64,000 nt of DNA from Deltaproteobacteria bacterium (GTDB lineage Bacteria > Myxococcota > Myxococcia > Myxococcales > 40CM-4-68-19), in NCBI GenBank assembly GCA_005879535.1, contig VBKI01000070.1:105847-169846 (forward strand), given 5' to 3'. Within the stretch, counting starts at the first letter, position 1. Each line of letters starts with the position of its first letter. Positions 48,316-62,072 of the stretch are shown here, piece by piece. The notes below the pieces were generated by a model. That model was not told the DNA's origin. It searched no databases and saw nothing but the letters and a program-made list of their open reading frames with translations. A program made the position numbers and the translations under genes.

Positions 48316-48553
48316 CGCGCCTCGCTCCGCACCAGGACGAGCATCCTGCAGCCGCGCGTCCCGTCAAAGTTTGCAGGTCCTCGCGTGCCGCAAGGATGTA
48401 TTGCGGGGTGGTCGCGGCGCGCGAAACGGGCGATGCCGCGCATCCGCCGCCACTTCGATGCGCCCTGTTCCGCCACGAGATTTGGACGCGCGCTGCGGCC
48501 ACCGATACCGTGCGCAGAGCCGGTCTCCGGTCGTTCAACCCAGGGGGAAATCG

Positions 48554-49141
48554 ATGATGGGCTGGATCGTCCTTGCCGTTCTGCTTCTCGCCGTCGTGCT
48601 CCTGGTGAGCGCCTACAATCGTCTGGTCGAGCTGCGCAACCGCTACAAGAACGCGTACTCGCAAATCGACGTCCAGCTCAAGCGTCGGTATGACCTGGTT
48701 CCCAACCTGGTCGAGACGGCAAAGGGCTACCTCAAGCACGAGCGCCAGACGCTGGAAGCGGTGATCCTGGCGAGGAACCAGGCCAGCCTCGCCGCACAGC
48801 GCGCTGCCGCCACTCCGGGCGAGGCCACGGCGATGCGGGACCTTGCGGGCGCGGAGGCAGCGCTGGGCGGCGCCCTGGGTCGCATGTTCGCGTTGGCCGA
48901 GGCGTACCCGGATCTGAAGTCGAATACGACCATGAACCAGCTCTCGGAGGAGCTCTCGTCGACCGAGAACAAGGTCGCCTTCGCCCGGCAGGCCTACAAC
49001 GACGCGGTGATGTCCTACAACACCGGCCGGGAGATCTTTCCGGTCTCGATCATCGCCGGAGCGACCGGCTTCGTCGAGGCGCGGCTCTTCGAGATCGAGC
49101 GCACGGTCGAGCGCGAGCCGGTGAAAGTCTCCTTCGCCTGA
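48554..49141 (+). CDS. lemA: LemA-family membrane protein
   Basis: 195 residues from the ATG at 48554 (an ATG follows at 48557), behind AGGGGGAAA. One N-terminal span with the short exterior end, then the LemA helical bundle: NRLVELRNRYKNAYSQIDV, LKRRYDLVPNLVETAKGYL, EAYPDLKSN, ELSSTENKVAFARQAYNDAV and YNTGREIFP. The function of LemA is unknown; it often precedes an M48 protease gene, and here that gene begins 11 bp later. Confidence 0.92.
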   Translation: MMGWIVLAVLLLAVVLLVSAYNRLVELRNRYKNAYSQIDVQLKRRYDLVPNLVETAKGYLKHERQTLEAVILARNQASLAAQRAAATPGEATAMRDLAGAEAALGGALGRMFALAEAYPDLKSNTTMNQLSEELSSTENKVAFARQAYNDAVMSYNTGREIFPVSIIAGATGFVEARLFEIERTVEREPVKVSFA

Positions 49142-49152
49142 GCCACGGACAG

Positions 49153-51102
49153 ATGGACTTCTTTGAGGCGCAGGAACGGGCGAAACGCCGGACGGGATGG
49201 CTGGTCGTGCTGTTCAGCCTCGCCGTCTGCGGAACGGTGATGGCGGTGTATGCCGTGGCAATGGGCGCCCTGCATTTGCTTGGCCTGCGTCTGTTGACCA
49301 ATCTGCCGACGCAATTCTGGGACCCCAACCTGTTCTGGAGGATCGCGGCCAACACCCTGATCTTGATCGTCGGGGTCAGCATCTACAAGACGCGGGCGGT
49401 GAGCGCCTCGGCGGATGCCATTGCTCTCGGCCTCGGTGGGCGCCTGTTGGATCCGAACACGGTCGACCCGCACGAGCGCCGGCTTCTCGACGTCGTGGAG
49501 GAGATGTCCATCGCGTCCGGGCTCCCGGTGCCTGCCGTGCATCTGTTGCCGCAAGAGGCGGGAATCAACGCGTTCGCCGTTGGCCTCGACGCCTCCCGCT
49601 CGGCGATCGCGGTGACCGACGGATGCCTCAGGCTGCTCTCGCGTGACGAGCTGCAGGGCGTCGTGGCCCACGAGTTCAGCCACCTTCTGAACGGCGACGC
49701 GAGGATGAACGTTCGCCTCCTGGGATTGGTCCACGGCATCCTGGTGATCGGCCTCATTGGCTCTGCGATCCTGAGGTCGTTTGGCCGGTCGAGCGACGGA
49801 AGCCGCCGCAAGGGCAATGTCGGCGGCTTGAGCGCCGTGATTTTCGTCGGGGTCTCGCTGTACGTGATTGGATCCATCGGCGTCTTCTTCGCGCGGCTCA
49901 TCAAGGCCGCGGTCAGCCGGCAACGCGAGCTGCTCGCCGATGCGGCGGGAGTGCAGTTCACCCGCAACCCGGCGGGGCTCGCGGGCGCGCTGAAGAAGAT
50001 CGGCCGTCTCTCGCGGGGCTCCCGCCTTCTCGCTCCCCGCGCGGAGGAGGCGAGCCACTTCTACTTCAGCGAGGGAATGGCGCGTTTCACCGCGCTGATG
50101 TCGACCCATCCTCCGCTGCCGGAGCGCATCCGACTCCTCGATCCGCAATTTGCCGGAGAGCTGCCGGAAGGGCAGCTCGAAGCTGTTGCGCTGGAGGATG
50201 AGATTCCAGGCGTCGCCGCCGCCGTCCCTGTCGCACAGCGACTCTCGCTGCGGCCCACCGTGGCGGTCGCCAGCATCGGAGCGCTCGGAGATCAGCACAT
50301 CGCCTACGCGCAATCCTTGCTGGCGCAAATTCCGCAGCGCCTCCGCGATTCCATCCGGGAGCCGTGGGTCGCGAGGGCCGTCGTACTGGCGCTGCTCCTC
50401 GACGGCAAGCCGGAGATCCGGACGGCGCAGTTGAAAGCCCTGCTCGCGATCGGCGATGCAAAGCTCGCCGAGGAGGTGTCCCGCGTGGCCGGCGCCCTGA
50501 GGACCTGTCCAGTGGAAGCGCGGCTGCCGGTCGTCGACCTCGCGCTGCCGGCTTTGAGGCGGTTGTCCCGCGCGCAGTGCGGCGATCTTCGCGCCGCCGT
50601 CGGCCGGCTGATCCGCGCCGACTCGCGCATCGGCTTGTTCGAATACACTCTGCAGCGTGTCCTGCTCCGCCATCTGGCCGCGCACTTCGGGCCGAGACGA
50701 CCGCCCGGGGGTCCGCAGGTCGAGGTCCGCGAAGCGTCGTCCCTCCTGCTCTCGATGCTCGCCTATGCGGGGGCCACGGATCCCGGCGAGGTTGCGCGAG
50801 CCTTCGAGGCGGCACGGGCGGAGTTGTCGCCGGGCCGCTTCCAGCTCACCCTGCTGCCGCGGAGCGATTGCGACCTGCATGCGCTGGATCGGGCCCTCGA
50901 CCGGCTCGTCGAGACGGCGCCGCGGCTCCGCGGCGAGATCCTCGGCGCCTGCGTCGCCGCCGTGGCGACGGACGGGAAAGTGACCATCGCCGAGGGCGAG
51001 ATGCTCCGCGCCATCTCCGACTCTCTCGGTTGTCCGATGCCGCCGCTGCTGCCCGGTGAGCACGTTCAGGCGATGGCCAGGCCTGCAACACGCACAGGCT
51101 GA
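49153..51102 (+). CDS. M48 family membrane metalloprotease with long C-terminal extension (TerB-like end)
   Basis: 649 residues. Two N-terminal spans, then GINAFAVG, the zinc motif His173-Glu-Phe-Ser-His177, two more spans, and the third ligand Glu259 in RQRELLADAAGVQF: an HtpX-type membrane protease. Normal HtpX ends near 300; this protein continues for 300 residues, helical, ending in ACVAAVATDGKVTIAEGEMLRAI, which has the TerB acidic loop pattern. The extension might recognise substrates or sense stress. Coupled with lemA. Confidence 0.85.
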   Translation: MDFFEAQERAKRRTGWLVVLFSLAVCGTVMAVYAVAMGALHLLGLRLLTNLPTQFWDPNLFWRIAANTLILIVGVSIYKTRAVSASADAIALGLGGRLLDPNTVDPHERRLLDVVEEMSIASGLPVPAVHLLPQEAGINAFAVGLDASRSAIAVTDGCLRLLSRDELQGVVAHEFSHLLNGDARMNVRLLGLVHGILVIGLIGSAILRSFGRSSDGSRRKGNVGGLSAVIFVGVSLYVIGSIGVFFARLIKAAVSRQRELLADAAGVQFTRNPAGLAGALKKIGRLSRGSRLLAPRAEEASHFYFSEGMARFTALMSTHPPLPERIRLLDPQFAGELPEGQLEAVALEDEIPGVAAAVPVAQRLSLRPTVAVASIGALGDQHIAYAQSLLAQIPQRLRDSIREPWVARAVVLALLLDGKPEIRTAQLKALLAIGDAKLAEEVSRVAGALRTCPVEARLPVVDLALPALRRLSRAQCGDLRAAVGRLIRADSRIGLFEYTLQRVLLRHLAAHFGPRRPPGGPQVEVREASSLLLSMLAYAGATDPGEVARAFEAARAELSPGRFQLTLLPRSDCDLHALDRALDRLVETAPRLRGEILGACVAAVATDGKVTIAEGEMLRAISDSLGCPMPPLLPGEHVQAMARPATRTG

Positions 51103-51123: not shown

Positions 51124-52341
51124 CTACTCCGCGTAGATCTTGATGCCAGTCGCGGCGGCGAAGGAAAGCCGCTGCGCCTCGGCCCACTCCGGGTGGCGCA
51201 CGATCACGTGGCCGTCGGAGAGCAACGTCTGCTTCCAGTTCCGCCGCGGTGTGCCCTCGCGCAGGAGCTTCTCCTCCACCGCCCAGGGACCGGCCTCGCG
51301 CAGCCATTCGCGGAGCCCGTCGATGCGCGCGATGCGGCCCCGGCCGGCTGCGCGCTTGAAGACGATGCCGACGTTGTACTTCCGCGCGGTCGGCGCCTCG
51401 AACTTCTGCCAGGTCGCCACGCGCGCCCATTCGCGAAAGAGGTCGATGTCGCAGGTGTAATTCATCTGATCGACCAGGTGCGCGCCGCCGGGGCGGCAAC
51501 CGATCTCGCCGAAGATGGCCTCGCCCCTGGGAGTGAGGAACCACTCCATGTGCGTGAAGCCGTCGCCCATCCCCAGGGCGGTGAGAACCTTGCGGCCGAG
51601 CTCGACGCCAGGGGCGAGGCGCTCCTGGTACATGTCGCGCACGGTGATGATCACCGGGCTCACCCACTCCTGCGAGCGCGCCTCGAGCGGCTTGGGCAGG
51701 TAGGCGGCGACGTTCTCGAAGGCCGGCTTGCCGTCGATGCAGACGGTATCGAACGTGAACTCTTCGCCCTGCACGTACTCTTCGCAGCTCGCCTCCGGCA
51801 CACCGCGCGTCGCCTCCAGGGCCGCCTCCAGCTCCGCCCTGGTCCGGACCGCGTACGTATCGGCGCTGCCCGCCCCGGCGATCGGCTTGAGGATCAGCGG
51901 CAGTCCAATTGCCTCGGCGGCTTCGTACACCTCGCGCTTGGTGCGCACGCGGCGCGACCGTGGCACGCGAAGGCCCGCGGCGCGCACGCGCTCCTTCATC
52001 AGCTCCTTGTCGCGGAAGCCGCGCACCGTATCCGGGCTCATGCCGGGCAACCCCCAGCGGTCGCGCATCCGGGCGGCCAGCATCACCAGCACCTCCCAGT
52101 TGGCGAGGACCCGATCGACACTCTTGCCACGCAGCCAGGCAGTGGCGCGCGCCATCACGTCGTCCTCGTCGAGGATGCGCGGCACCTCCAGGTAATCGTG
52201 CAGGTGCGGCCGCACTTCGGCGGGCAGCGCCGCGCGACGCGTGTCGCCGATGCCGAGCACCTCCGCGCCCACCTCGGAAAGCCCGCGCGTGTACTGGATC
52301 ATCTCGGGCGGAAACGCAGGCGAGAGGAAGACCGCGCGCAT
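51124..52341 (-). CDS. ATP-grasp ligase 1 of amidoligase cluster
   Basis: 405 residues. N-terminal Rossmann-like PreATP-grasp (MRAVFLSPAFPPEMIQYTRG, VLGIGDT), ATP lysines in LPLILKPIAGAGSADTYAV, EEYVQGEEFTFDTVC, and Mg site HMEWFLTPRGEAIFGEIGCRPGG. Such enzymes join a carboxylate to an amine through an acyl phosphate. It is transcribed away from the other cluster genes, from a 65-bp divergent spacer shared with ligase 2. Confidence 0.85.
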   Translation of the reverse strand: MRAVFLSPAFPPEMIQYTRGLSEVGAEVLGIGDTRRAALPAEVRPHLHDYLEVPRILDEDDVMARATAWLRGKSVDRVLANWEVLVMLAARMRDRWGLPGMSPDTVRGFRDKELMKERVRAAGLRVPRSRRVRTKREVYEAAEAIGLPLILKPIAGAGSADTYAVRTRAELEAALEATRGVPEASCEEYVQGEEFTFDTVCIDGKPAFENVAAYLPKPLEARSQEWVSPVIITVRDMYQERLAPGVELGRKVLTALGMGDGFTHMEWFLTPRGEAIFGEIGCRPGGAHLVDQMNYTCDIDLFREWARVATWQKFEAPTARKYNVGIVFKRAAGRGRIARIDGLREWLREAGPWAVEEKLLREGTPRRNWKQTLLSDGHVIVRHPEWAEAQRLSFAAATGIKIYAE

Positions 52342-52406
52342 CGAGGGCAGCTTAGCACCCGGAGCGGTTTGACGGAGTCGCCGCGGATCGCCATTCTCCC
52401 GCCGCC

Positions 52407-53624
52407 ATGCCCCGAAACGTGATCTTCGCGGCGCCCTTCCCCACCGACATCACCATGCGATTCGTTCGCGCCGCCGCACGACTGCCGGAGGTGCGGCTGC
52501 TGGGGATCGTGCACACGCCTCCTGAGGGAGAGGATGCGGCCGTCTATCGCGACCTGGTCCGGGTCACCGACCCGCTCTCGACGCAGGACTTGATCGAGGC
52601 CACCGAGATCCTGCGGCGCCGCCACGGCCATCCCGACCGCATCATCGGGATTCTCGAGGCGATGATGGTGCAGCTCGCGCAGACCCGCGCGCACTTCGGC
52701 GTCCCGGGGACCCAGCCGAAGATCGCCGAGCTGTTCCGCGACAAGGCGCGGATGAAGACAGCGCTGCGCGAAGCCGGGCTCCCGGTGGCAAGGAGCCGCC
52801 TCATCGGCGGTCCGGGCGATGCGCGCAGCTTCGCCGACGAAGTCGGCTTTCCGCTGGTCCTCAAGCCGCCGGCGGGAATGGGCGCCAAGTCCACCTGGCG
52901 GGTGAGCTCGCTGGACGAGCTGCTGCGTGGGAGCGCAGGAATGGGCGCCAGCGAAGCGAGACCGGTGCTGGCCGAAGAGTTCCTCCGCGGGCGCGAATTC
53001 AGCTTCGAGACCATCACGCTCGGTGGCGTTCCCCGGATCGAATCCATCTCGCAGTACCAGCCCACCTGCCTGGAAGTGCTGGAGAACCCCTGGATCCAGT
53101 GGTGCTGCGTGCTCCCCCGCGACATCTCGGGCGCTCAGTACGACGGCGCACGGAAGATGGCGCGCGGGGCGATCGCGGCGCTGGGCCTGACCGACGGGAT
53201 GACGCACATGGAATGGTTCCAGCGCCCGGATGGCAGTCTGGTGATTGGCGAGATCGCGCAAAGGCCCCCGGGCGCCAACATCACGACCATGACCGGACTG
53301 GCGCACGGAGTGGACGCCTTTCGCGCCTGGGTCCGCGCCGTGGTCGACGGCGAATTGGAGGGCACCTGGGACCGGAAGTACGCGGTCGGCTCTGCTTTTT
53401 TGCGCGGGATGGGGCACGGGCGCGTGGCTCACGTGGGTGGCGTCCACGAGGTCCACCAGGCGGTCGGAAGGCTGGTCGTGGAAGCGAAGCTACCCTCCGT
53501 CGGCGCTCTGAAGAGCGACGGATACGAAGGGGACGGTTACGTGATCGTCCGGGACGAAAGCACCGACGTCGTCCAGCAGGCGCTGAAGAGGATCATCGAG
53601 ACCGTCGAGGTGCATTACGCCTGA
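52407..53624 (+). CDS. ATP-grasp ligase 2 of amidoligase cluster
   Basis: 405 residues, same layout as ligase 1: MPRNVIFAAPFPTDITMRF, FRDKARMKTALREAGLPVARS, FPLVLKPPAGMGAKSTWRV, AEEFLRGREFSFETITLGG and HMEWFQRPDGSLVIGEIAQRPPG. Paralogue of ligases 1 and 3 by motif order and length. Begins the plus-strand part of the cluster; 66 bp separate it from ligase 3. The substrates are unknown. Confidence 0.85.
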   Translation: MPRNVIFAAPFPTDITMRFVRAAARLPEVRLLGIVHTPPEGEDAAVYRDLVRVTDPLSTQDLIEATEILRRRHGHPDRIIGILEAMMVQLAQTRAHFGVPGTQPKIAELFRDKARMKTALREAGLPVARSRLIGGPGDARSFADEVGFPLVLKPPAGMGAKSTWRVSSLDELLRGSAGMGASEARPVLAEEFLRGREFSFETITLGGVPRIESISQYQPTCLEVLENPWIQWCCVLPRDISGAQYDGARKMARGAIAALGLTDGMTHMEWFQRPDGSLVIGEIAQRPPGANITTMTGLAHGVDAFRAWVRAVVDGELEGTWDRKYAVGSAFLRGMGHGRVAHVGGVHEVHQAVGRLVVEAKLPSVGALKSDGYEGDGYVIVRDESTDVVQQALKRIIETVEVHYA

Positions 53625-53690
53625 TGGTCGTCGTGCAAAGCTTAGCGCCAGCGGCGTTACCCCGACCCCGGTTCTGATAGGCTTCCTCGA

Positions 53691-54803
53691 ATGCCCGCAG
53701 ACGTCATCTTCCTCGAGCCGTCCTTCCCCCGGAACCAGCGCGAGTTCGTCCGCGCGCTGCACGCCGTCGGCGCACGGGTGACCGGAATCGGCGAGCGTCC
53801 GAAGGAATGGCTCGACCCGGAGCTGCGCCACTGGCTCACCCACTACGAGCAGGTCGGCAACGTCACCGACGAGGCCCAGGTGGAACGCGCCGTCCGCTTC
53901 GTCCAGTCGAAGGTGCGCGTCGACCGGCTGGAGGCAGTGGTCGAGGCGCACGTGATGTGCGCGGCGCGGGTCCGGGAGATGTGCGGAATCCCCGGGACCA
54001 GCGTGCGGACGACATTTCTCTGCCGCGACAAGCCTGCGATGAAGGACGCCCTCAGACAGGCTGGAATCCCCTGCGCCCAGTCGATCGGCTCCGGGAGCCC
54101 GGACGAGATTCGCGGCTTCGCCGCCCGCGTCGGCTTTCCGCTGGTGATCAAGCCGCGTGACGCGGCGGGCGCCTCCGGCACAGCGCGGGTCGACAATCCC
54201 CCCGAGCTCGAACAGGCGATGGCTTCGTTCGGGGTCGGTCGCGGGCGGAGCGCCGCCGTGGAGGAGTTCATCGAGGGCCACGAAGGCTTCTACGACACCG
54301 TCGCCATCGGCGGACGGGTCGTCCAGGAATTCATCACGCACTACTACCCGACGGTGCTGGAGGCGATGCGGACGCGGTGGATCTCGCCGCAGTTCGTAAC
54401 CACCAACCGCCTCGGCGCCGAGGGATACACCGAGCTGAAGCAGATGGGCCGCAAGGTGCTCGCGGCGCTCGGCATCGAGACGTCGGCCACGCACATGGAG
54501 TGGTTCGCCGGACCCAAGGGACTCAAGTTCAGCGAGATCGGCTGCCGCCCGCCGGGCGTCGGCACCTGGGACCTGTATTGCGCCGCGAACGAGTTCGACC
54601 TCTACCGCGAGTGGGCGATGGCCGTCGTGCACGGCAAGCCGAGCCAGCCACCGTCGCGACGCTTCGCCGCCGGTTTGATTGCGCTGCGGCCCGACCGGGA
54701 CGGCGTGATCGCCGGTTACGAGGGCGTCGACGACGTCCACCGACGCTTCGGCGATCGGTTACATGGCGAACGCATGGATGCGCCTCAAGCACCCCGACTA
54801 TGA
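53691..54803 (+). CDS. ATP-grasp ligase 3, C-terminus displaced by deletion/frameshift
   Basis: 370 residues as read. MPADVIFLEPSFPRNQREF start, LCRDKPAMKDALRQAGIP, FPLVIKPRDAAGASGTARV, VEEFIEGHEGFYDTVAIGG and HMEWFAGPKGLKFSEIGCRPPG show a complete catalytic core. After VDDVHRRFGD (about 54755) the frame runs into out-of-frame codons and stops at 54803. The proper end (GYMANAWMRLKHPDYDELRG...) continues in the +1 frame to 54861. Compared with ligases 1 and 2, about 15-20 residues are missing at the junction. The core may still be active, or the lesion may be an assembly error. Confidence 0.85.
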   Translation: MPADVIFLEPSFPRNQREFVRALHAVGARVTGIGERPKEWLDPELRHWLTHYEQVGNVTDEAQVERAVRFVQSKVRVDRLEAVVEAHVMCAARVREMCGIPGTSVRTTFLCRDKPAMKDALRQAGIPCAQSIGSGSPDEIRGFAARVGFPLVIKPRDAAGASGTARVDNPPELEQAMASFGVGRGRSAAVEEFIEGHEGFYDTVAIGGRVVQEFITHYYPTVLEAMRTRWISPQFVTTNRLGAEGYTELKQMGRKVLAALGIETSATHMEWFAGPKGLKFSEIGCRPPGVGTWDLYCAANEFDLYREWAMAVVHGKPSQPPSRRFAAGLIALRPDRDGVIAGYEGVDDVHRRFGDRLHGERMDAPQAPRL

Positions 54804-54861
54804 CGAGCTGCGCGGCATGCTCGACTTCGTCGGCCGGACCGCCAAGGTGCGGGCCCGGTGA
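54757..54861 (+). other. Out-of-frame native C-terminus of ATP-grasp ligase 3
   Basis: In the +1 frame relative to 53691, bases 54757-54861 encode GYMANAWMRLKHPDYDELRG followed by MLDFVGRTAKVRAR and TGA. The TGA overlaps the GTG start of the next gene (GTGA), matching the coupled junctions elsewhere in this cluster. That makes it the original 3' end of ligase 3. Confidence 0.8.
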
Positions 54862-55814
54862 CCCCGAAGGGCCCCTCCGCAGTCGTTCTCCTCGGCGCGC
54901 AGCGCTTCGATCCCACGCTGGGAGCGGCGGTGGCCGAGCTGGGCGTGACCGGCCGCATCGCCACCATCACCGCCGGATGGCAGGAGCGCGAGCTCGAGGA
55001 CGAGGAGCTTTCGGAGCACCTGGGAAGGAAGACGGTGAACCTGCGGCTGCACACCCGCGGCGAGGAGCTGTTCGCCGCCGATCCCGAGCTGCGCGCGGCA
55101 CACCGCGAACGCCAGGAAGCGCTCCGGCATCGCCAGGACTTCTATCGCATCCGCCTGGAACACCAGCTCGATGCCGACCACGTGATCCGCCAGCGCGTCG
55201 CCCCGCCGGAGATCCTCGCCGAGCAGACCGAAGCGTCGATCGACTCCATCCGCGACCTCGACCGCTGGCACCTGGCGCAGTGCGCCCGGGAACACGAGGC
55301 GTTCGAGCACCGCTTGCACCTGCGCGATCGCCCCACCGTGGCGCGGCACCGCAAGGAGATCTCCCAGATCGTCGCCGACTGCGCCGCCATTGCCGTCGCT
55401 GGAGGCCACGTCGTCACGCTGATCAACCGGATGAAGCTCTTCGGGATCGGCGAGCTGGCCGGCGGGCGGGTCGTCTTCGCCTGGTCGGGCGGAGCGATGG
55501 CCGTCAGCGAGCAGGTGGTCCTCTTCCACGACGATCCCCCGCAAGGTCCCGGCGCCAGCGAAGTGCTCGACACGGGCCTGGGCATCTGCCGGGGCGCGGT
55601 GGTCTTCCCCGAGCCGGAGAAGCGCCTCCGCCTCGACCGGAAGGATCTCGTCGCGCGGATGGCCCGCCGATTCTCGCCCTGCTTCTGCCTGGCGTTGCCG
55701 GCGCGCTCGCGGATCACCTGGCGAGCAGGTCGATTCGACTCCAGCCGCGGAGTGCAATGGCTTCGAGCGGACGGCGAGACGGTTCCTTTCGAGCCGCAGG
55801 AGGCGCTCCGATGA
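54858..55814 (+). CDS. Peptidase S51/class I GATase-like protein
   Basis: 318 residues from a GTG. It begins SAVVLLGAQRFDPTLGAAV, holds a charged helical insertion (about 60-150), and has VVFAWSGGAMAVSEQVVLFHD (Ser about residue 209 at the nucleophile elbow), the Cys/Ser place of S51/cyanophycinase-like and GATase1-like folds. It could hydrolyse the amide bonds that the ligases make, or act as an amidase. Overlaps its neighbours on both sides (GTGA, ATGA). Confidence 0.7.
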   Translation: MTPKGPSAVVLLGAQRFDPTLGAAVAELGVTGRIATITAGWQERELEDEELSEHLGRKTVNLRLHTRGEELFAADPELRAAHRERQEALRHRQDFYRIRLEHQLDADHVIRQRVAPPEILAEQTEASIDSIRDLDRWHLAQCAREHEAFEHRLHLRDRPTVARHRKEISQIVADCAAIAVAGGHVVTLINRMKLFGIGELAGGRVVFAWSGGAMAVSEQVVLFHDDPPQGPGASEVLDTGLGICRGAVVFPEPEKRLRLDRKDLVARMARRFSPCFCLALPARSRITWRAGRFDSSRGVQWLRADGETVPFEPQEALR

Positions 55815-56941
55815 GCGGGAAGCTCGCCATCGAAGAGGTCCTCGCCGATCCGCAGCAGGCGGGCCGCTTCCTCGAGACCCACCGCTTTCCCTTGGTCGAG
55901 GGAACCCACGTCACCGTCATCTGGGTGGGGCAGGCAGATGGCGTGAGCCTCCGCCACTGGATCTACGGCCTCGAGTCGTCCACCGCGCTCGCGCGCGTGC
56001 CGGGCACCGACCTCTGGTACCTGACCCTCGAGATCCCGCCTGCTTCGCGCGTCGAGTACAAGCTGGAGATCCACCGCGGCGGCGGCAGTGAATGGGTGGA
56101 GGATCCCCTCAATCCCAACCGCGCCCGCGATCCGTTCGGCGCCAATTCAGTGCTCCAGACCGAAGGGTACGAGGCGCCTTCCTGGACTCGCCCCGATCCG
56201 CATGCGCGGCCGGGCGCGCTCGAGCCGCTCTCGATCGAGAGCGCCTTTCTGGGCAAGAGAGGTGGCGTCCTCTACCTGCCCGCGCGATTTCGCAAGAGCC
56301 GCCAGTACCCTCTCCTCGTGGTCCACGACGGCAGCGATTACCTGAACTACGCGGGCATGAAGACGGTACTCGACAACCTCATCCACGCCCGCGAGATCCC
56401 GGAGCTGATCGTCGCCTTCACCGACTCGCCGGAGCGGCTGACCGAATACGCCAACGACGAGCGCCACGCGCGGTTTCTCACCGAAGAGCTCCATCCGCAG
56501 CTGGCGAGCACGTTCCCGCTGCTCAATCGCGCGCAGTCTCGCTGCCTGATGGGCGCCAGCTTCGGCGCGGTGGCCGCGTTCTCTACCGCCTGGCGATATC
56601 CCGGGCATTGGGGGCGGCTGCTCTTGCAGTCCGGCTCCTTCGCCTTCACGGACATCGGCAAGCGCAACCGCCGCGGGCCGCTCTTCGACCGGGTGGTCGA
56701 GTTCGTCAACAGCTATCGGGAGGAGCCGAAGGCGGTGAGCGAGCGGGTCTTCCTCAGCTGCGGCGTCTACGAATCGCTGATCTACGAAAACCGCTCGATG
56801 GTGCCTTTGCTCGCGGCCACGGGCATGGAAGTCCGCTTCGTGGAGTCCCGCGACGGCCACAACTGGGAGAACTGGCGCGACCGCCTCCGGGAAGGTCTCT
56901 CCTGGCTCTTCCCCGGGCCGTTGAGCTTCATTTACGAGTGA
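55811..56941 (+). CDS. Esterase with N-terminal CBM48-like domain (Fes/EstD-like alpha/beta hydrolase)
   Basis: 376 residues. The N-terminal 115 residues (VTVIWVGQADGVSLRHWIYG, YLTLEIPPASRVEYKLEI, DPLNPNRARDPFG) form an immunoglobulin/CBM48-like fold as in enterochelin esterases. The catalytic domain has LLVVHDGSDYLNYAGM, RCLMGASFGAVAAFSTAWRY (Ser about 249) and SRDGHNWENW with the His. Such enzymes cut ester-linked peptides or siderophores. ATG overlaps the previous stop; no signal peptide. Confidence 0.82.
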   Translation: MSGKLAIEEVLADPQQAGRFLETHRFPLVEGTHVTVIWVGQADGVSLRHWIYGLESSTALARVPGTDLWYLTLEIPPASRVEYKLEIHRGGGSEWVEDPLNPNRARDPFGANSVLQTEGYEAPSWTRPDPHARPGALEPLSIESAFLGKRGGVLYLPARFRKSRQYPLLVVHDGSDYLNYAGMKTVLDNLIHAREIPELIVAFTDSPERLTEYANDERHARFLTEELHPQLASTFPLLNRAQSRCLMGASFGAVAAFSTAWRYPGHWGRLLLQSGSFAFTDIGKRNRRGPLFDRVVEFVNSYREEPKAVSERVFLSCGVYESLIYENRSMVPLLAATGMEVRFVESRDGHNWENWRDRLREGLSWLFPGPLSFIYE

Positions 56942-56948
56942 GGATCGC

Positions 56949-58184
56949 ATGGCCGAGGTCACGCGTCGCATCGGATTGTCGCTCGGGGCCGACCTCTGCT
57001 GGCCTCTCTGCTTCGAGCACATGCTCAAGCGGCTCGACCTTCGCATTCCCTGGCAGGGCGACACGCTGCTCTTCGACGTCGAGCGCGTCACCATCGAGCC
57101 GTTCGAGCTGCGCCAACCCTGCAAGTACGACGTGGTCGTCGATCGGCTGACGCACTGGTATCACACCAGCCGCGAGTGGATTAAGAAGTGCATCGTCCTG
57201 AATGACCTCTACGTCTTCAACAATCCGTGGAGTGTCCAGGCCAACGAGAAGCACACCTCCTACTGCGCGATGATGCGGCTGGGGATGCCGATTCCCGAGA
57301 CGTGGATGCTTCCGCCCAAGAGCTACGATCCCACGCCCGATCTGAAGCCGACGCTCATCCGCTACGCCAAGCTGTTCGACCTGAAGAAAGTGGGCGACGC
57401 GGTCGGCTGGCCGTTCTTCCTCAAGCCCTACGACGGCGGCGGCTGGCGCGGCGTGAACCGCGTCGCCGACGAGAAGGCCGCCTGGAAGGCTTACGAAGAC
57501 AGCGGCACGGCGGTGATGCACGCGCAAGCCGCGGTGGAAGGATTCGACCTCTTCGTCCGCTGCATCGGCTTCGGGCCGCAGACCCGTTGCGTGCTCTACG
57601 ATCCTTCCGCGGCGCTGCACGACCGCTACACGATGAAGGCCGGGTTCATGCCGGCCGCGGACATCCAGCACCTGCGCAAGGTGACCTTGACCATCAACGC
57701 CTTCTTCGGCTGGGAGTTCAACTCCTGCGAGGCGTTGCGCAAGAAGGGCGTGTGGTACCCGATCGACTTCGCCAATCCCTGCCCCGACTCGCAGGTGACC
57801 TCGCTGCACTTCCACTTTCCCTGGCTGGTCAAGGCCTATCTGCGCTGGACGATCTTCTGCGCCGCCACCAAGCGAAAGATGCGCCGGACGCTCGACTGGG
57901 AGCCTTTCTACGCCGTGGCGGCGCAGGACCTCTCCTACGAGGAGAAGCTGGATCGCTACGCGAAGATCGCCGAGGAACGGTTCGAGACGGCGCGGTTCGA
58001 AGAGTTCTGCAAGAAGCATCTCGGCCACCTCGACCAGATCGCCTTCGACTTCTTCGGCAGCCCCGAGGCAAAGGAGGCCGTGCGCGTCAAGGTGGCCGCC
58101 CTCTTCCCGGAGCACGAGCTCGAGCGCTTCACCGAGCTGTTCTGGAACCGGATCCAGGACTGGCGCCGCCAGGGATGCCCATGA
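56949..58184 (+). CDS. ATP-grasp ligase 4 (RimK/carboxylate-amine ligase type)
   Basis: 411 residues, distinct from ligases 1-3. WPFFLKPYDGGGWRGVNRV (ATP loop), VEGFDLFVRCIGFGPQTR, GWEFNSCEALRKKGVWYPIDFANPCPD (Mg site) and a helical end with LSYEEKLDRYAKIAEERFE. Similar to large cytosolic RimK-related ligases paired with esterases. It begins 7 bp after the esterase and overlaps the next by ATGA. Confidence 0.8.
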   Translation: MAEVTRRIGLSLGADLCWPLCFEHMLKRLDLRIPWQGDTLLFDVERVTIEPFELRQPCKYDVVVDRLTHWYHTSREWIKKCIVLNDLYVFNNPWSVQANEKHTSYCAMMRLGMPIPETWMLPPKSYDPTPDLKPTLIRYAKLFDLKKVGDAVGWPFFLKPYDGGGWRGVNRVADEKAAWKAYEDSGTAVMHAQAAVEGFDLFVRCIGFGPQTRCVLYDPSAALHDRYTMKAGFMPAADIQHLRKVTLTINAFFGWEFNSCEALRKKGVWYPIDFANPCPDSQVTSLHFHFPWLVKAYLRWTIFCAATKRKMRRTLDWEPFYAVAAQDLSYEEKLDRYAKIAEERFETARFEEFCKKHLGHLDQIAFDFFGSPEAKEAVRVKVAALFPEHELERFTELFWNRIQDWRRQGCP

Positions 58185-58918
58185 GCTTCTTCCTGAAGTC
58201 GCGCTGGCATTCCTCGCGCCTGGGCTGCGAGGCCACCCTCGCCCGCTGGGGCGAGTTCGGCCAGCCCGTGCTGGTCTTTCCCACCGCGGGCGGCGACGCG
58301 GAGGAGATCGAGCGGTTCCAGTTGATCAAGGCGCTCGGCTCGCTGCTGGAGTCGGGCCGCATCAAGATCTACTCCTGCGACAACGTGGCCGGCTCGATGT
58401 GGTTCAACAAGCAAGGCAGCCCGGACCAGCGCATGAAGATGCAGAACGAGTTCCACCAGTACGTGAAGCACGAGCTGGCGCCCGCCATCCGCACCGACTG
58501 CCACACGCCTGACATCGGCGTCTGGGCGGCGGGCTCGTCGATCGGCGCCTTTCACGCCGCCGCTGTGGTCTGCCGCTTTCCCGACCTCTTCCACCGCGCG
58601 CTCTCGATGAGCGGCACGTACAACCTGATGCGCTTCATCGAGGTGTCCGAACCGAACGAGGAATTCCGCGTCTCCTCGCCGCTTCACTTCCTCCCGCACC
58701 TGCAGGGCCCGCATCTCGAGCTGCTGCGCAAGCGGTACATCCACATCGCCACCGGCGAAGGACGGTGGGAGAACATCGGGGAGAGCTGGGCCTTGGCGAA
58801 TGCCCTCGGAGCGAAGGGCATCCCGAACCATCTCGATTCCTGGGGAATGAAATGGGACCACGACTGGGTGACCTGGCGTGCGATGATGCCCAAGTATCTG
58901 GACGAGTGGACCCGGTAG
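58181..58918 (+). CDS. Putative esterase (alpha/beta hydrolase, COG4947-like)
   Basis: 245 residues. PVLVFPTAGGDAEEIERF, GVWAAGSSIGAFHAAAVVCRFPD (Ser about 118), SMSGTYNL and a final HLDSWGMKWDHDWVTWRAM carrying the His. Small esterase type frequently found beside ATP-grasp enzymes. Coupled to ligase 4 by an ATGA overlap. Together with the larger esterase it suggests an acyl/peptidyl ester intermediate. Confidence 0.78.
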   Translation: MSFFLKSRWHSSRLGCEATLARWGEFGQPVLVFPTAGGDAEEIERFQLIKALGSLLESGRIKIYSCDNVAGSMWFNKQGSPDQRMKMQNEFHQYVKHELAPAIRTDCHTPDIGVWAAGSSIGAFHAAAVVCRFPDLFHRALSMSGTYNLMRFIEVSEPNEEFRVSSPLHFLPHLQGPHLELLRKRYIHIATGEGRWENIGESWALANALGAKGIPNHLDSWGMKWDHDWVTWRAMMPKYLDEWTR

Positions 58919-58929
58919 GAGCAACGACG

Positions 58930-60909
58930 ATGGACGACACGCGGGAACACAAGAAGACCGACGGCCTGCTCGAAGGCGAGGCGCGCCGCCGGTTCATGCG
59001 CGCCGTGCTTGCCGATCTCCGGGCGCTCGAGCAGATGCTGGAGGCCGGCGCCTTCGAGCGCGGAGTGGTCCGCATCGGCGCCGAGCAGGAGCTGTTCCTG
59101 GTCGACCGCGCCTATCACCCGGCGCCAGGCGCGCTGAAGATCCTCGAGCGCATCGACGATCCCCACTTCACCACCGAGCTGGGCCTCTTCAACCTGGAAG
59201 CGAACGCCGATCCGCAGCCGCTCGCCGGAAAGGGCCTCTCGAAGATGGAGGAGCAGCTCGCCCTGCTCTTCGACAAGGTGCGGAGGACCGCCGCCGAGCT
59301 CGACATGCACGCCGTGCTGGCTGGCATCCTGCCCACCATCGGCAAGTCCGATCTCGGCATGCACAACATGGTGCCGAATCCGCGCTATCACGCGCTCAGC
59401 CGCGCCATGGGCGAGGCCCGCGGCGAGGCCTTCGACTTTTCCATCAAGGGGATCGACGACCTGGTGGTCAAGCACGACTCGGTGATGGTGGAAGCGTGCA
59501 ACGCCAGCTTCCAGGTGCACTTGCAGATCCCGGAGCCGGAGCGATTTGCCCACTACTACAATCTGGCCCAGCTCCTCTTGGCGCCGGTGCTGGCGGCAGG
59601 GCCCAACTCGCCCGTGCTGTTCGGCAGGCGGCTCTGGTCGGAGACGCGCATCGCCCTCTTCGAACAGGCCTGCGACATCCGCACGCCCGGGCACCATCTG
59701 CGGGATTCGATCCCCCGCGTCTCCTTCGGCAGCGGCTGGCTGAAGGGTACCGTCGCCGACATCTTCCGCGAGAACGTCGTTCGCTTCCGCGCACTGGTGG
59801 GCACCGAGATCGACGAGCATGCCAGCGTCGCCTTTGCGAAGGGTCGCATTCCGGAGCTGAAGGCGCTGCGGCTGCACAACGGGACCATCTACCGCTGGAA
59901 CCGGCCCTGCTACGGGATCTCCGAAAACGGCAAGCCGCACCTGCGGGTCGAGCTGCGCGTCCTTCCCTCGGGGCCGACCATCGCCGACGAGGTGGCCAAC
60001 GGCGCCTTCTGGCTGGGGCTGATGATGGAGATGTCCGCCACCATCGACGACCTGCCAGCGCGGATCGAGTTCGACGACGCGCGCGTCAATCTCTACGCGG
60101 CGGCCCGCGAGGGCCTGGGAGCGCACGTCACCTGGTTCGATGGCAAGCAGATGCTGGCGCAGCAGCTCATCCTCGATCACCTGCTCCCTCTGGCGAAGGC
60201 GGGCCTGGACCGCGCCGGCGCCGACGCGGAGGATTCGGCCCGCTATCTCGGGATCGTCGAGCGCCGCGTGCGCACCGGACGCAATGGCGCGCGCTGGATG
60301 CTGCAGTCGCTCTCCGAGATGAAAGGCCGCGGCTCGACGGGCGCGCGCCTCAACGCGCTGACCGCGGCGATGATCGCGCGCCAGGAGACGGACCGCGTGG
60401 TCAGCGATTGGGAGCGGGCGCGGCTGGACGAGAGCGAGAGCGAACGGGTGGGCCACCACAAGGTCTCGCAGTACATGAACACGGACATCTTCACCGTCCG
60501 GCCCGACGACCCGGTGGAGCTGGTAGCCGATCTGATGGGCTGGGAGCGGATCCGGCACGTCCCGGTCGAGGACGACAAAGGACGGCTGGTCGGGCTGGTT
60601 TCGTATCGCGGCGTCTTGCGGCACCTGAGCGGCCTGCACAAGTTCCCGCCCCAGCCCGGCGGCGCCAGCTCGCCCGTCGCGGACATCATGAAGCGCGAGC
60701 TGATCACCGTCACGCCCGATACACCCACGCTGGAGGCCATCTCTCTCATGCGCCGTTATCGCATCGGTTGCTTGCCCGTCGTGCAGGACGGACACATCGT
60801 CGCCGTCCTGACCGAGGAGGACTTCGTCGGCATCGCTTCCAAGGTGCTGGCCGAGGAGCAGAAGCACGGCACGCCGGAGACAACCGGCGGCACGCGGGCG
60901 GACGCGTAG
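58930..60909 (+). CDS. GCS2-family carboxylate-amine ligase fused to a CBS-domain pair
   Basis: 659 residues from the ATG at 58930. Residues about 40-500: glutamate-cysteine ligase type 2 fold with RIGAEQELFLVD, TELGLFNLEANADPQPL, HAVLAGILPTIGKSDL, HNGTIYRWNRPCYG and LRVELRVLPSGPT. Residues about 515-640: two CBS motifs (MNTDIFTVRPDDPVELVADLMGWERIRHVPV, MKRELITVTPDTPTLEAISL) that bind adenosyl nucleotides. GCS2 enzymes form gamma-glutamyl or similar amides; CBS would allow control by energy charge. A regulatory fusion consistent with an ATP-demanding pathway. Confidence 0.87.
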   Translation: MDDTREHKKTDGLLEGEARRRFMRAVLADLRALEQMLEAGAFERGVVRIGAEQELFLVDRAYHPAPGALKILERIDDPHFTTELGLFNLEANADPQPLAGKGLSKMEEQLALLFDKVRRTAAELDMHAVLAGILPTIGKSDLGMHNMVPNPRYHALSRAMGEARGEAFDFSIKGIDDLVVKHDSVMVEACNASFQVHLQIPEPERFAHYYNLAQLLLAPVLAAGPNSPVLFGRRLWSETRIALFEQACDIRTPGHHLRDSIPRVSFGSGWLKGTVADIFRENVVRFRALVGTEIDEHASVAFAKGRIPELKALRLHNGTIYRWNRPCYGISENGKPHLRVELRVLPSGPTIADEVANGAFWLGLMMEMSATIDDLPARIEFDDARVNLYAAAREGLGAHVTWFDGKQMLAQQLILDHLLPLAKAGLDRAGADAEDSARYLGIVERRVRTGRNGARWMLQSLSEMKGRGSTGARLNALTAAMIARQETDRVVSDWERARLDESESERVGHHKVSQYMNTDIFTVRPDDPVELVADLMGWERIRHVPVEDDKGRLVGLVSYRGVLRHLSGLHKFPPQPGGASSPVADIMKRELITVTPDTPTLEAISLMRRYRIGCLPVVQDGHIVAVLTEEDFVGIASKVLAEEQKHGTPETTGGTRADA

Positions 60910-60911
60910 AG

Positions 60912-62072
60912 GTGGAGGCCTACAAGATCGAGGCGCGCGGCATCGAGATCGAACGGCGCGAGATCGGCCGGCTCGTGGGAGAGGAGCCCGGCCCCACCGT
61001 GGTGATCGTCGCCGGCATCCACGGGAACGAGCCCGCCGGTACGGAGGCGGCCCGACGCGTCTTCGCGCGGCTGTCGAGAGGAGACCTCCGAATCCGCGGC
61101 GAGCTGGTGGCGTTCGCCGGCAACCTGGCGGGCCTGCGGCTCGGCGTCCGCTACCAGGCCAAGGACCTGAACCGCGTCTGGAGCGAAGCGCACATCGCGG
61201 CCTTGCGAGAAAAGCGGTCCAGCGAGCACGATCCCGAAGATCGGGAGCAGCTCGAGCTATTGGCTGCCATTGAGTCCGCCCTCGGCCGTGCCCGTGGCCG
61301 CGTCCATCTCGTCGACTTGCACACCACCAGCGCCGCGGGCATTCCCTTCGTCCTCTTCGGCGACACCCTGGCGCAGCGGCGCTTCGCACGGGCCTTTCCC
61401 CTGCCCGTGATCATCGGGCTCGAGGAGCAGCTCGACGCCGTGCTCACGGAATACTGGACGCGGCGCGGTTGCACGACGTTGGCCATCGAGGGCGGCCAGC
61501 ACGCGAGCCCAGACTCGACCGACGCGATCGAGGCATTCCTCTGGTTCGCGCTGGTCCGAGCCGGACTGCTCGAGGGCCACGCTCCGACCGAGGTCGCGCG
61601 CAGCGCCGCGCTCCTCGACCAGAGACGCGCCGGCCTCCCGCGCGTGGTGGAGGTGATCTCGCGGCGGTCGGTATCGCCCGAGGACGGATTCCGCATGGAG
61701 CCGGGATTCCGCAACATCGACCGCGCGCGGAAGGGGCAGCTTCTGGCGCGTGACCAGAACGGCGAGATCCGCGCTCCCGCCGACGGCATGGTCCTCCTGC
61801 CGCTGTACCAGGGATTGGGCCGCGACGGCTTTTTCTGGGGCAGGGAGGTCAGCGGTGCGCGCCTGCTGGCGTCGGAGGCATTGCGGGCGATCGGCGCGGA
61901 GCGGCTCCTCGGCATCCTCCCGGGAATGGCGCGTGACCCTCGCGACCCGTCGCGGTTCGTCGTCGACGCTCGGTCAGCACGGCCTCTCACGCTCGAGCTG
62001 TTGCATCTCTTCGGATATCGGCGAGTCCGCGAGGACGGCTCCCGGCTGATCGTCGAGCGCCAGCAGCCTTGA
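60912..62072 (+). CDS. Succinylglutamate desuccinylase/aspartoacylase-type M14 deacylase
   Basis: 386 residues from a GTG two bases after the GCS2 stop, a close but unhelpful spacing for a ribosome-binding site (TAGAGG). Zn site VAGIHGNEPAGTEAARR (His, Glu) and VHLVDLHTTSAAG (His), substrate Arg/Asn pair in GVRYQAKDLNRVWSE, and catalytic Glu in LAIEGGQH. The last 100 residues form the usual beta domain. It hydrolyses N-acyl amino acids, so may trim the amidated product or remove a protecting group. Confidence 0.85.
   Translation: MEAYKIEARGIEIERREIGRLVGEEPGPTVVIVAGIHGNEPAGTEAARRVFARLSRGDLRIRGELVAFAGNLAGLRLGVRYQAKDLNRVWSEAHIAALREKRSSEHDPEDREQLELLAAIESALGRARGRVHLVDLHTTSAAGIPFVLFGDTLAQRRFARAFPLPVIIGLEEQLDAVLTEYWTRRGCTTLAIEGGQHASPDSTDAIEAFLWFALVRAGLLEGHAPTEVARSAALLDQRRAGLPRVVEVISRRSVSPEDGFRMEPGFRNIDRARKGQLLARDQNGEIRAPADGMVLLPLYQGLGRDGFFWGREVSGARLLASEALRAIGAERLLGILPGMARDPRDPSRFVVDARSARPLTLELLHLFGYRRVREDGSRLIVERQQP

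What the first reader, a model, noticed from the sequence alone, without database searches (positions are those of the whole stretch)
51124..62072. Large coupled amidoligase cluster: four ATP-grasps, GCS2-CBS, M14 deacylase, S51-like protein, two esterases
Eight plus-strand genes with overlapping or nearly touching ends, plus one divergent ligase. Ligases of three types, hydrolases of three types and a nucleotide-sensing CBS ligase together look like a pathway for assembling and maturing a non-ribosomal peptide, gamma-glutamyl conjugate or storage amide. ATP-grasp/GCS2/esterase/M14 neighbourhoods are recognised in comparative genomics of amidoligases, but I know of no defined product for this combination.
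Basis: partly seen in the sequence, partly recalled or inferred. Interest (0 to 1): 0.85.

Follow-up and report, generated by a model that had tools for sequence, protein, structure and literature searches.

The report
Conserved amidoligase–esterase cluster, glycogen-synthase partner
This is a real, strongly conserved set of enzymes found in several bacterial phyla that appears to build and recycle an unknown cell-internal compound made from amino acids, and in most relatives (though not in this genome) it travels with its own private copy of glycogen synthase, which hints that the compound also contains or accompanies glucose.

Summary
The nine-gene cluster at 51124–62072 is real and far beyond chance. 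In 195 Myxococcota genomes the RimK-like ATP-grasp (AG4) occurs in 25 and the S51-like protein in 26, 24 of them shared (Fisher p≈2e-27). The same genes recur, with order rearranged, in Acidobacteriota, Gammaproteobacteria, Actinomycetota and Eiseniibacteriota. All nine window genes show purifying selection (dN/dS 0.11–0.26), and the catalytic residues checked are conserved except the S51 nucleophile.

It forms one clade (SH-aLRT 99), separate from the housekeeping GlgA of the same genomes. It is present in 22 of 25 AG4-positive and 1 of 170 AG4-negative Myxococcota genomes. The window's own genome lacks it, and the window's third ligase (AG3) is broken by a 56-bp deletion and frameshift.

Best reading: a cytosolic, probably energy-gated pathway that makes and recycles a non-ribosomal amide metabolite, in most relatives linked to an ADP-glucose-type glucan or glucosyl unit. 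The pathway-level claim is strong; the product is unknown. Verdict: a new variant of the known amidoligase–hydrolase neighbourhoods, interest about 0.65.

The parts
51124..52341 (-). AG1: ATP-grasp ligase, L-amino acid ligase type; divergent partner of AG2
   Evidence: ORF 405 aa; PF13535 1.3e-08; orthologues 64-77% in Myxococcota, ~45% in other phyla; usually divergent to AG2 (15 of 21 loci with both)
52407..53624 (+). AG2: ATP-grasp ligase, L-amino acid ligase type
   Evidence: ORF 405 aa; PF02222 2.4e-10; group of its own in the tree of AG1-3
53691..54803 (+). AG3: ATP-grasp ligase, reading frame broken near 54753 by a 56-bp deletion relative to relatives
   Evidence: ORF as called 370 aa; PF02222 7.8e-10; family profile matches L-amino acid ligase 4wd3 at 8.7e-20 and BacD; deletion and frameshift
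54753..54861 (+). Out-of-frame remnant of the AG3 C-terminus (IGYMANAWMRLKHPDYDELRGMLDFVGRTAKVRAR), stop overlapping the S51 start
   Evidence: sequence, alignment with L083 and L183
54858..55814 (+). S51-like protein (cyanophycinase/peptidase E type fold), GTG start
   Evidence: PF03575 0.0029 in the window protein, 11 of 15 orthologues up to 8.4e-06; GGH and W-S/C-AGAM motifs
55811..56941 (+). est1: enterochelin-esterase-like alpha/beta hydrolase with N-terminal E-set (Enterochelin_N/CBM48-like) domain
   Evidence: PF00756 6.7e-19; PDB Fes 2b20 3.9e-15; Ser250/Asp348/His350 invariant in 71 rows
56949..58184 (+). AG4: divergent RimK/DDL-like ATP-grasp, no Pfam match; most conserved marker of the system
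   Evidence: orthologue alignment; Foldseek to DDL, RimK, ArgX (model pLDDT 65); K159, E261, D273, N276 invariant in 81 rows
58181..58918 (+). est2: second alpha/beta hydrolase (PF00756 family)
   Evidence: PF00756 6.4e-09; Ser120 and His227 invariant in 58 rows
58930..60909 (+). GCS-CBS: glutamate-cysteine-ligase-fold carboxylate-amine ligase with C-terminal CBS pair
   Evidence: CBS 2.4e-28; model pLDDT 79 matches plant GCL 2gwc, YbdK 1r8g and AcuB CBS pairs; E52, E54, E83, H197, R339, E341, R343 invariant in 39 rows
60912..62072 (+). AstE/AspA-type zinc aminoacylase, GTG start
   Evidence: PF24827 7e-20; H37, E40, H137, N87, R88, E193 invariant in 19 rows

Best explanation
A cytosolic pathway that makes and turns over a non-ribosomal, amide-linked amino-acid conjugate. 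Shown: the genes form one conserved functional set across at least five phyla, nearly all with intact catalytic residues, and most relatives add a dedicated ADP-glucose-type glycogen synthase. Inferred: the GCS-CBS enzyme makes the first amide (probably a gamma-glutamyl amide) with its activity set by adenylate binding at the CBS pair; the three L-amino-acid-ligase-type ATP-grasps and the RimK-like AG4 then extend it through acyl-phosphate chemistry; GlgA type 2 supplies a glucosyl or short alpha-glucan part to which the amino-acid part is joined, or with which it is co-stored; the two esterases, the S51-like protein and the AstE-type aminoacylase open ester and amide bonds to trim or recycle it. 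The likeliest role is reserve or stress protection. The window's copy is a reduced variant that lacks GlgA type 2 and has a broken AG3.
For: Synteny: 80 best AG4 loci, S51-est1 adjacent within 300 bp in 68 of 69, est1-AG4 in 70 of 75, est2-GCS in 43 of 44, GCS-AstE in 20 of 20. Genome-wide co-occurrence p about 2e-27 (S51), 2e-24 (GCS-CBS), 8e-25 (GlgA type 2); 6e-13 at genus level for S51. Same content in a different order in Gammaproteobacteria: AG2-S51-est1-AG4-est2-AG1-GlgA-AG3. GlgA type 2 is one clade with support 99 that excludes housekeeping GlgAs; GlgC adjoins in 4 loci (by sequence reading). GCS and ATP-grasp folds. Conserved catalytic residues and dN/dS 0.11-0.26. No recurrent transporter, regulator, NRPS or precursor among neighbours. 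AcuB, the closest CBS match in PDB, was solved with AMP, ADP and ATP.
Against: No product, substrate or expression data. The window genome lacks GlgA type 2 and has a broken AG3, so the full pathway may not run there. Two cluster-bearing Myxococcota genomes (G163, G053) have no GCS-CBS, and in Acidobacteriota GCS-CBS and AstE sit at a separate locus, so GCS-CBS may be an optional branch. The S51 nucleophile is not strictly conserved. GlgA might only be co-regulated.
Confidence: 0.45

Rival explanations
1. A purely amino-acid product: a gamma-glutamyl or N-acyl di/tripeptide compatible solute or nitrogen store, with GlgA only co-regulated as a parallel carbon store.
For: AG3 profile best matches L-amino acid ligases (4wd3, 8.7e-20) and BacD; GCS-fold ligase; S51-like and AstE-type hydrolases fit recycling; the window genome keeps nine genes without GlgA type 2.
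Against: Two esterases with intact nucleophiles, one with an E-set domain, are not needed for a plain peptide; GlgA type 2 is a dedicated paralogue with its own clade tied to the cluster.
Confidence: 0.3
2. A protein or peptide tagging system in which AG4 (RimK-like) adds residues to a target and the hydrolases remove them.
For: AG4 model matches RimK and the carrier-protein ligase ArgX.
Against: AG4 model confidence is low (pLDDT 65); no conserved carrier or target gene in the neighbourhood; does not explain GlgA.
Confidence: 0.1
3. A secreted bacilysin- or dapdiamide-like antibiotic pathway.
For: Weak matches of AG1-3 to BacD and DdaF families.
Against: All far below the curated cut-offs (for example 38.5 against 850 bits); no exporter, resistance or tailoring gene recurs.
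Confidence: 0.06
4. A low-molecular-weight thiol pathway (glutathione- or mycothiol-like: GCS plus ligase plus sugar plus deacylase).
For: GCS fold with a weak EgtA match, a glucosyltransferase in relatives, an aminoacylase.
Against: GlgA type 2 is GT5 glycogen synthase above the TIGR02095 cut-off, not an MshA/BshA-type GT4; no MshC/BshC-like gene recurs.
Confidence: 0.06
5. Chance neighbours with unrelated roles.
For: None found.
Against: Rearranged but content-conserved clusters in several phyla and co-occurrence p below 1e-23.
Confidence: 0.01

Closest known systems
Amidoligase-hydrolase gene neighbourhoods (Iyer et al. 2009, Mol Biosyst 5:1636; known here only as a citation in PMC12239564 and PMC4431377, text not held)
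   Same: Several ATP-grasp/GCS ligases linked to hydrolases of unrelated folds. Distant myxobacterial relatives (L175, L176, L178, L016) show the mix ATP-grasp + M17 + S8 + GATase-like + AG4-like + GCS2.
   Different: The window set has two esterases, an S51-like protein, GCS fused to CBS and, in most relatives, a dedicated glycogen synthase. Whether the 2009 paper lists this exact set could not be checked.
L-amino acid ligases (4wd3, BacD, BL00235)
   Same: ATP-grasp family; best PDB matches of AG3
   Different: Three ancient paralogues in one cluster; far below the BacD cut-off; substrates unknown
GCS2/YbdK/EgtA carboxylate-amine ligases
   Same: Fold and E/H/R active-site pattern
   Different: C-terminal CBS pair; sequence too divergent for Pfam GCS2 in the window copy
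Cyanophycin metabolism
   Same: ATP-grasp synthesis plus S51-type hydrolase logic
   Different: No CphA1 (matches about 31-38 bits against cut-off 850-877); S51 match sub-threshold
NAGGN osmoprotectant dipeptide system
   Same: ATP-grasp ligase making an intracellular capped dipeptide (TIGR03103 weak match to AG3)
   Different: No GNAT-fused ligase at cut-off (17 against 569 bits) and no glutamine-amidotransferase gene in the set
GlgA glycogen synthase (GT5)
   Same: Cluster GlgA passes TIGR02095 (515 against 328 bits)
   Different: A separate clade found with the amidoligase cluster, absent from nearly all genomes lacking it

Membership tests
GCS2 / glutamate-cysteine-ligase-type carboxylate-amine ligase (P0008) | GCS fold | tested here: met
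   AlphaFold model pLDDT 79; Foldseek 2gwc 4e-12, 1r8g 9e-12
GCS2 / glutamate-cysteine-ligase-type carboxylate-amine ligase (P0008) | Pfam PF04107 match | tested here: inconclusive
   Not matched by the window protein at E<=0.1; matched by 19 of 24 orthologues, best 3.7e-11
GCS2 / glutamate-cysteine-ligase-type carboxylate-amine ligase (P0008) | Gamma-glutamyl ligase activity | not testable with these tools
   Needs an assay; candidate active-site residues E52, E54, E83, H197, R339, E341, R343 invariant
AstE/AspA aminoacylase (P0009) | PF24827 above cut-off and zinc ligands H/E/H | tested here: met
   71.8 against 25 bits; H37, E40, H137, E193 invariant
Succinylglutamate desuccinylase AstE proper | TIGR03242 equivalog cut-off | tested here: not met
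   50.4 against 305.65 bits
Peptidase S51 (P0004) | PF03575 above cut-off with invariant Ser nucleophile | tested here: inconclusive
   17.7 against 23.9 bits; 11 of 15 orthologues at E<=0.01; Ser in 44, Cys 14, Thr 4, Gly/Ala 4 of 66
Enterochelin esterase Fes (P0005) | Equivalog cut-off NF007758 | tested here: not met
   104.7 against 222 bits; superfamily PF00756 and nucleophile Ser are met
L-amino acid ligase (AG1-3) | ATP-grasp domain with Mg/ATP residues | tested here: met
   ATP-grasp Pfam matches over cut-off; PDB L-amino acid ligase 8.7e-20 for the AG3 family; invariant K and E-I..R motif
L-amino acid ligase (AG1-3) | Ligation of two L-amino acids | not testable with these tools
   No assay
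RimK glutamate ligase (AG4) | TIGR00768 cut-off | tested here: not met
   15.9 against 143.4 bits; only the ATP-grasp fold is shared
Graspetide/RiPP cluster | Precursor peptide gene | tested here: not met
   Gaps of at most 66 bp between genes; no conserved small ORF family of at least 90 aa among neighbours. Peptides shorter than 90 aa in the flanks were not screened.
Anti-phage defence system | PADLOC model match | tested here: not met
   0 of 9 proteins
Full ten-gene system with GlgA type 2 | GlgA type 2 in the genome | tested here: not met
   Window genome has only the housekeeping GlgA (368.6 bits; the C75 end fragment is an assembly overlap of the same gene)

The most novel reading that the evidence does not exclude
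The system makes a hybrid reserve or protective polymer: an alpha-glucan built by a dedicated glycogen synthase and decorated through ester bonds with amino acids or gamma-glutamyl peptides made by the amidoligases, released by the two esterases, the S51-like protein and the aminoacylase, and gated by adenylate energy charge through the CBS pair. It would be a combined carbon and nitrogen store.
Probability: 0.15. Interest if true: 0.88.

Novelty: new variant of a known kind. Interest (0 to 1): 0.65.

Why it matters
A conserved set of about ten enzymes with no assigned product occurs in at least five bacterial phyla, in this sample almost entirely in metagenome-assembled genomes. Finding a private glycogen synthase tied to four ATP-grasp ligases and two esterases turns 'unknown amidoligase cluster' into a concrete test: look for an amino-acid-bearing glucan or glucosyl conjugate inside the cell. 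If confirmed it would add a new class of bacterial reserve or stress compound.

Tried and rejected
Plasmid search with AG4: no match. PDB sequence search with the S51 profile: nothing even at E<=10 that supports the fold, so the S51 label rests on weak Pfam matches and motifs. Est2 profile: no PDB match at 0.001. Defence systems rejected. RiPP/graspetide rejected for lack of a precursor. Second GlgA in the window genome considered because of a fragment on contig C75; rejected because it duplicates the start of the C103 gene. The KdpD/sensor kinase and Ser/Thr kinase neighbours are sporadic and at varying places, so they were left out. The Iyer 2009 amidoligase paper was sought by three identifiers and is not held. 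Literature searches for a GlgA/ATP-grasp/esterase cluster found none.
Full report
Observation. Window 51124-62072 holds nine tightly packed genes: AG1 (minus strand) and eight plus-strand genes, AG2, AG3, S51-like, est1, AG4, est2, GCS-CBS and AstE-like. Family scans confirm three ordinary ATP-grasp ligases, two PF00756 hydrolases, a CBS pair and an AstE/AspA zinc aminoacylase. AG4 has no Pfam match, but its family gives weak DDL matches and its model resembles DDL, RimK and ArgX (mean pLDDT only 65). The N-terminal half of P0008 misses Pfam GCS2, but 19 of 24 orthologues match and the model (pLDDT 79) matches plant glutamate-cysteine ligase, YbdK and AcuB-type CBS pairs. The S51 assignment is weaker: sub-threshold in the window, up to 8.4e-06 in orthologues, with a nucleophile position that is Ser, Cys or Thr in 62 of 66 rows.

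A broken gene. The window AG3 lacks 56 bp that the orthologues in G007 and in the same-genus genome G003 have, which shifts the frame and cuts off the conserved C-terminus. The G003 copy also has an indel of its own, so assembly error is possible. The part upstream of the break has dN/dS 0.11 against G007 and the other eight genes 0.13-0.26, so any decay would be recent.

Conservation. A scan of GTDB representative contigs with an AG4 alignment found 479 relatives, of which the best 80 were kept. Of these, 63 are Myxococcota, 6 Pseudomonadota, 4 Acidobacteriota, 2 Actinomycetota, 1 Eiseniibacteriota and 4 unplaced. All 80 titles are MAGs, so single placements in odd phyla may be binning errors, but broader searches gave 7 of 199 Acidobacteriota-phylum genomes, 14 of 296 genomes of the Actinomycetota class around G196 and 39 of 296 genomes of the order around G198. 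Neighbouring genes are within 300 bp in 68 of 69 (S51-est1), 70 of 75 (est1-AG4), 50 of 59 (AG4-est2), 43 of 44 (est2-GCS) and 20 of 20 (GCS-AstE) loci. In Gammaproteobacteria the same parts occur in a new order, AG2-S51-est1-AG4-est2-AG1-GlgA-AG3. In Acidobacteriota GCS-CBS, with or without AstE, lies at a second locus.

Co-occurrence. Over the same 195 Myxococcota genomes, AG4 orthologues (E<1e-100) are in 25, S51 in 26 and GCS-CBS with the CBS half in 26. AG4 and S51 share 24; the three discordant genomes (G154, G003, G155) are fragmented or incomplete. Fisher p is 2.4e-27, and 6e-13 counted by genus. Genomes are not phylogenetically independent, so these p-values overstate the evidence; the rearranged order across phyla is the stronger argument. 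Close relatives of the window genome lack AG4 (G001 97% and G002 96% complete), so the cluster is patchy within its genus.

The glycogen synthase. Screening every conserved ORF around the 80 loci showed a GlgA in 37 and an N-formylglutamate-amidohydrolase-like protein in 11. No other family recurs as a fixed neighbour; a Ser/Thr kinase family found in a dozen loci lies at varying places. GlgC adjoins in four loci (identified by reading the sequence, not by a family scan). The cluster GlgA passes the TIGR02095 cut-off. Genomes with the cluster often have two GlgAs; the four examined without it (G001, G002, G108, G022) have one. A tree puts 47 cluster GlgAs from several phyla in one clade with support 99 and no housekeeping GlgA inside. 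Genome-wide, scores split cleanly: 23 of 195 genomes score 504 bits or more and the rest 404 or less; 22 of the 25 AG4-positive genomes have type 2 against 1 of 170 others, and that one (G155) has S51 and GCS-CBS. The window genome has only the housekeeping form, whereas the same-genus genome G003 has the start of a type-2 GlgA beside AG3. A distant AG4-est2 pair (L024) also sits beside a GlgA, but that GlgA falls outside the clade on a long branch.

Mechanism. Conserved catalytic residues suggest that nearly all the enzymes work; the S51 nucleophile is the exception. Ligases of GCS and ATP-grasp type form amides through acyl phosphates (established knowledge of these families). The hydrolases provide trimming or turnover. 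CBS pairs bind adenylates in many proteins and AcuB, the nearest match, was solved with AMP, ADP and ATP, so energy gating is plausible but untested. The lack of any recurrent transporter or regulator points to an intracellular product (inference). GlgA type 2 points to an alpha-glucan or glucosyl partner, and two esterases fit ester links between the two parts (inference). Peptide-glycan copolymers made with ATP-grasp ligases are mentioned as a bacterial theme in PMC2824669.

Standing. Amidoligase neighbourhoods as a kind were described in 2009 by Iyer and colleagues; that text is not held, so whether this exact set was listed is unknown. A different relative in the same phylum combines AG4-like, YbdK-type GCS2, M17, S8 and GATase-like genes. 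The present set with its private glycogen synthase is rated a new variant.

Noticed in passing
L083:5182-6729, L228:14703-16214, L172:4535-5977 and other loci: A second, cluster-specific glycogen synthase clade (GlgA type 2) that tracks the amidoligase cluster across phyla but is absent from the window genome.
   Followed up: yes
L124:4107-5045, L126-L128, L130, L134-L139: An N-formylglutamate-amidohydrolase-like gene (PF05013) directly upstream of GlgA in 11 loci.
   Followed up: partly
L144, L153, L156, L238: A GlgC-like gene adjoining the cluster GlgA, read from sequence only.
   Followed up: partly
L175:2674-11105; also L176, L178, L177, L016: A distant myxobacterial amidoligase system: ATP-grasp, M17 aminopeptidase, S8 subtilase, GATase-like protein, AG4-like ATP-grasp, YbdK-type GCS2 and a 402-aa family without any Pfam match.
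   Followed up: partly
L015:1286-7413: AG4-like plus est2-like pair with an M61-like peptidase and a flavin amine oxidase (labels by eye; the M61-like protein has no NCBIfam match).
   Followed up: no
window 53691-54861 and L183:236-1239: AG3 carries different indels in two genomes of the same genus; either decay or repeated assembly error.
   Followed up: partly
G199:C57:54162-55388 and G199:C110:1231-2454: One gammaproteobacterial genome holds two AG4 orthologues, perhaps two clusters.
   Followed up: no
window 48371-51102: LemA-like protein and M48 peptidase immediately left of the cluster (labels by eye); not conserved with it.
   Followed up: no
L014 and L083 (between AG2 and GlgA, L014:1953-3982): Two ArsA-like ATPase genes (label by eye) between AG2 and GlgA in G007.
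   Followed up: no
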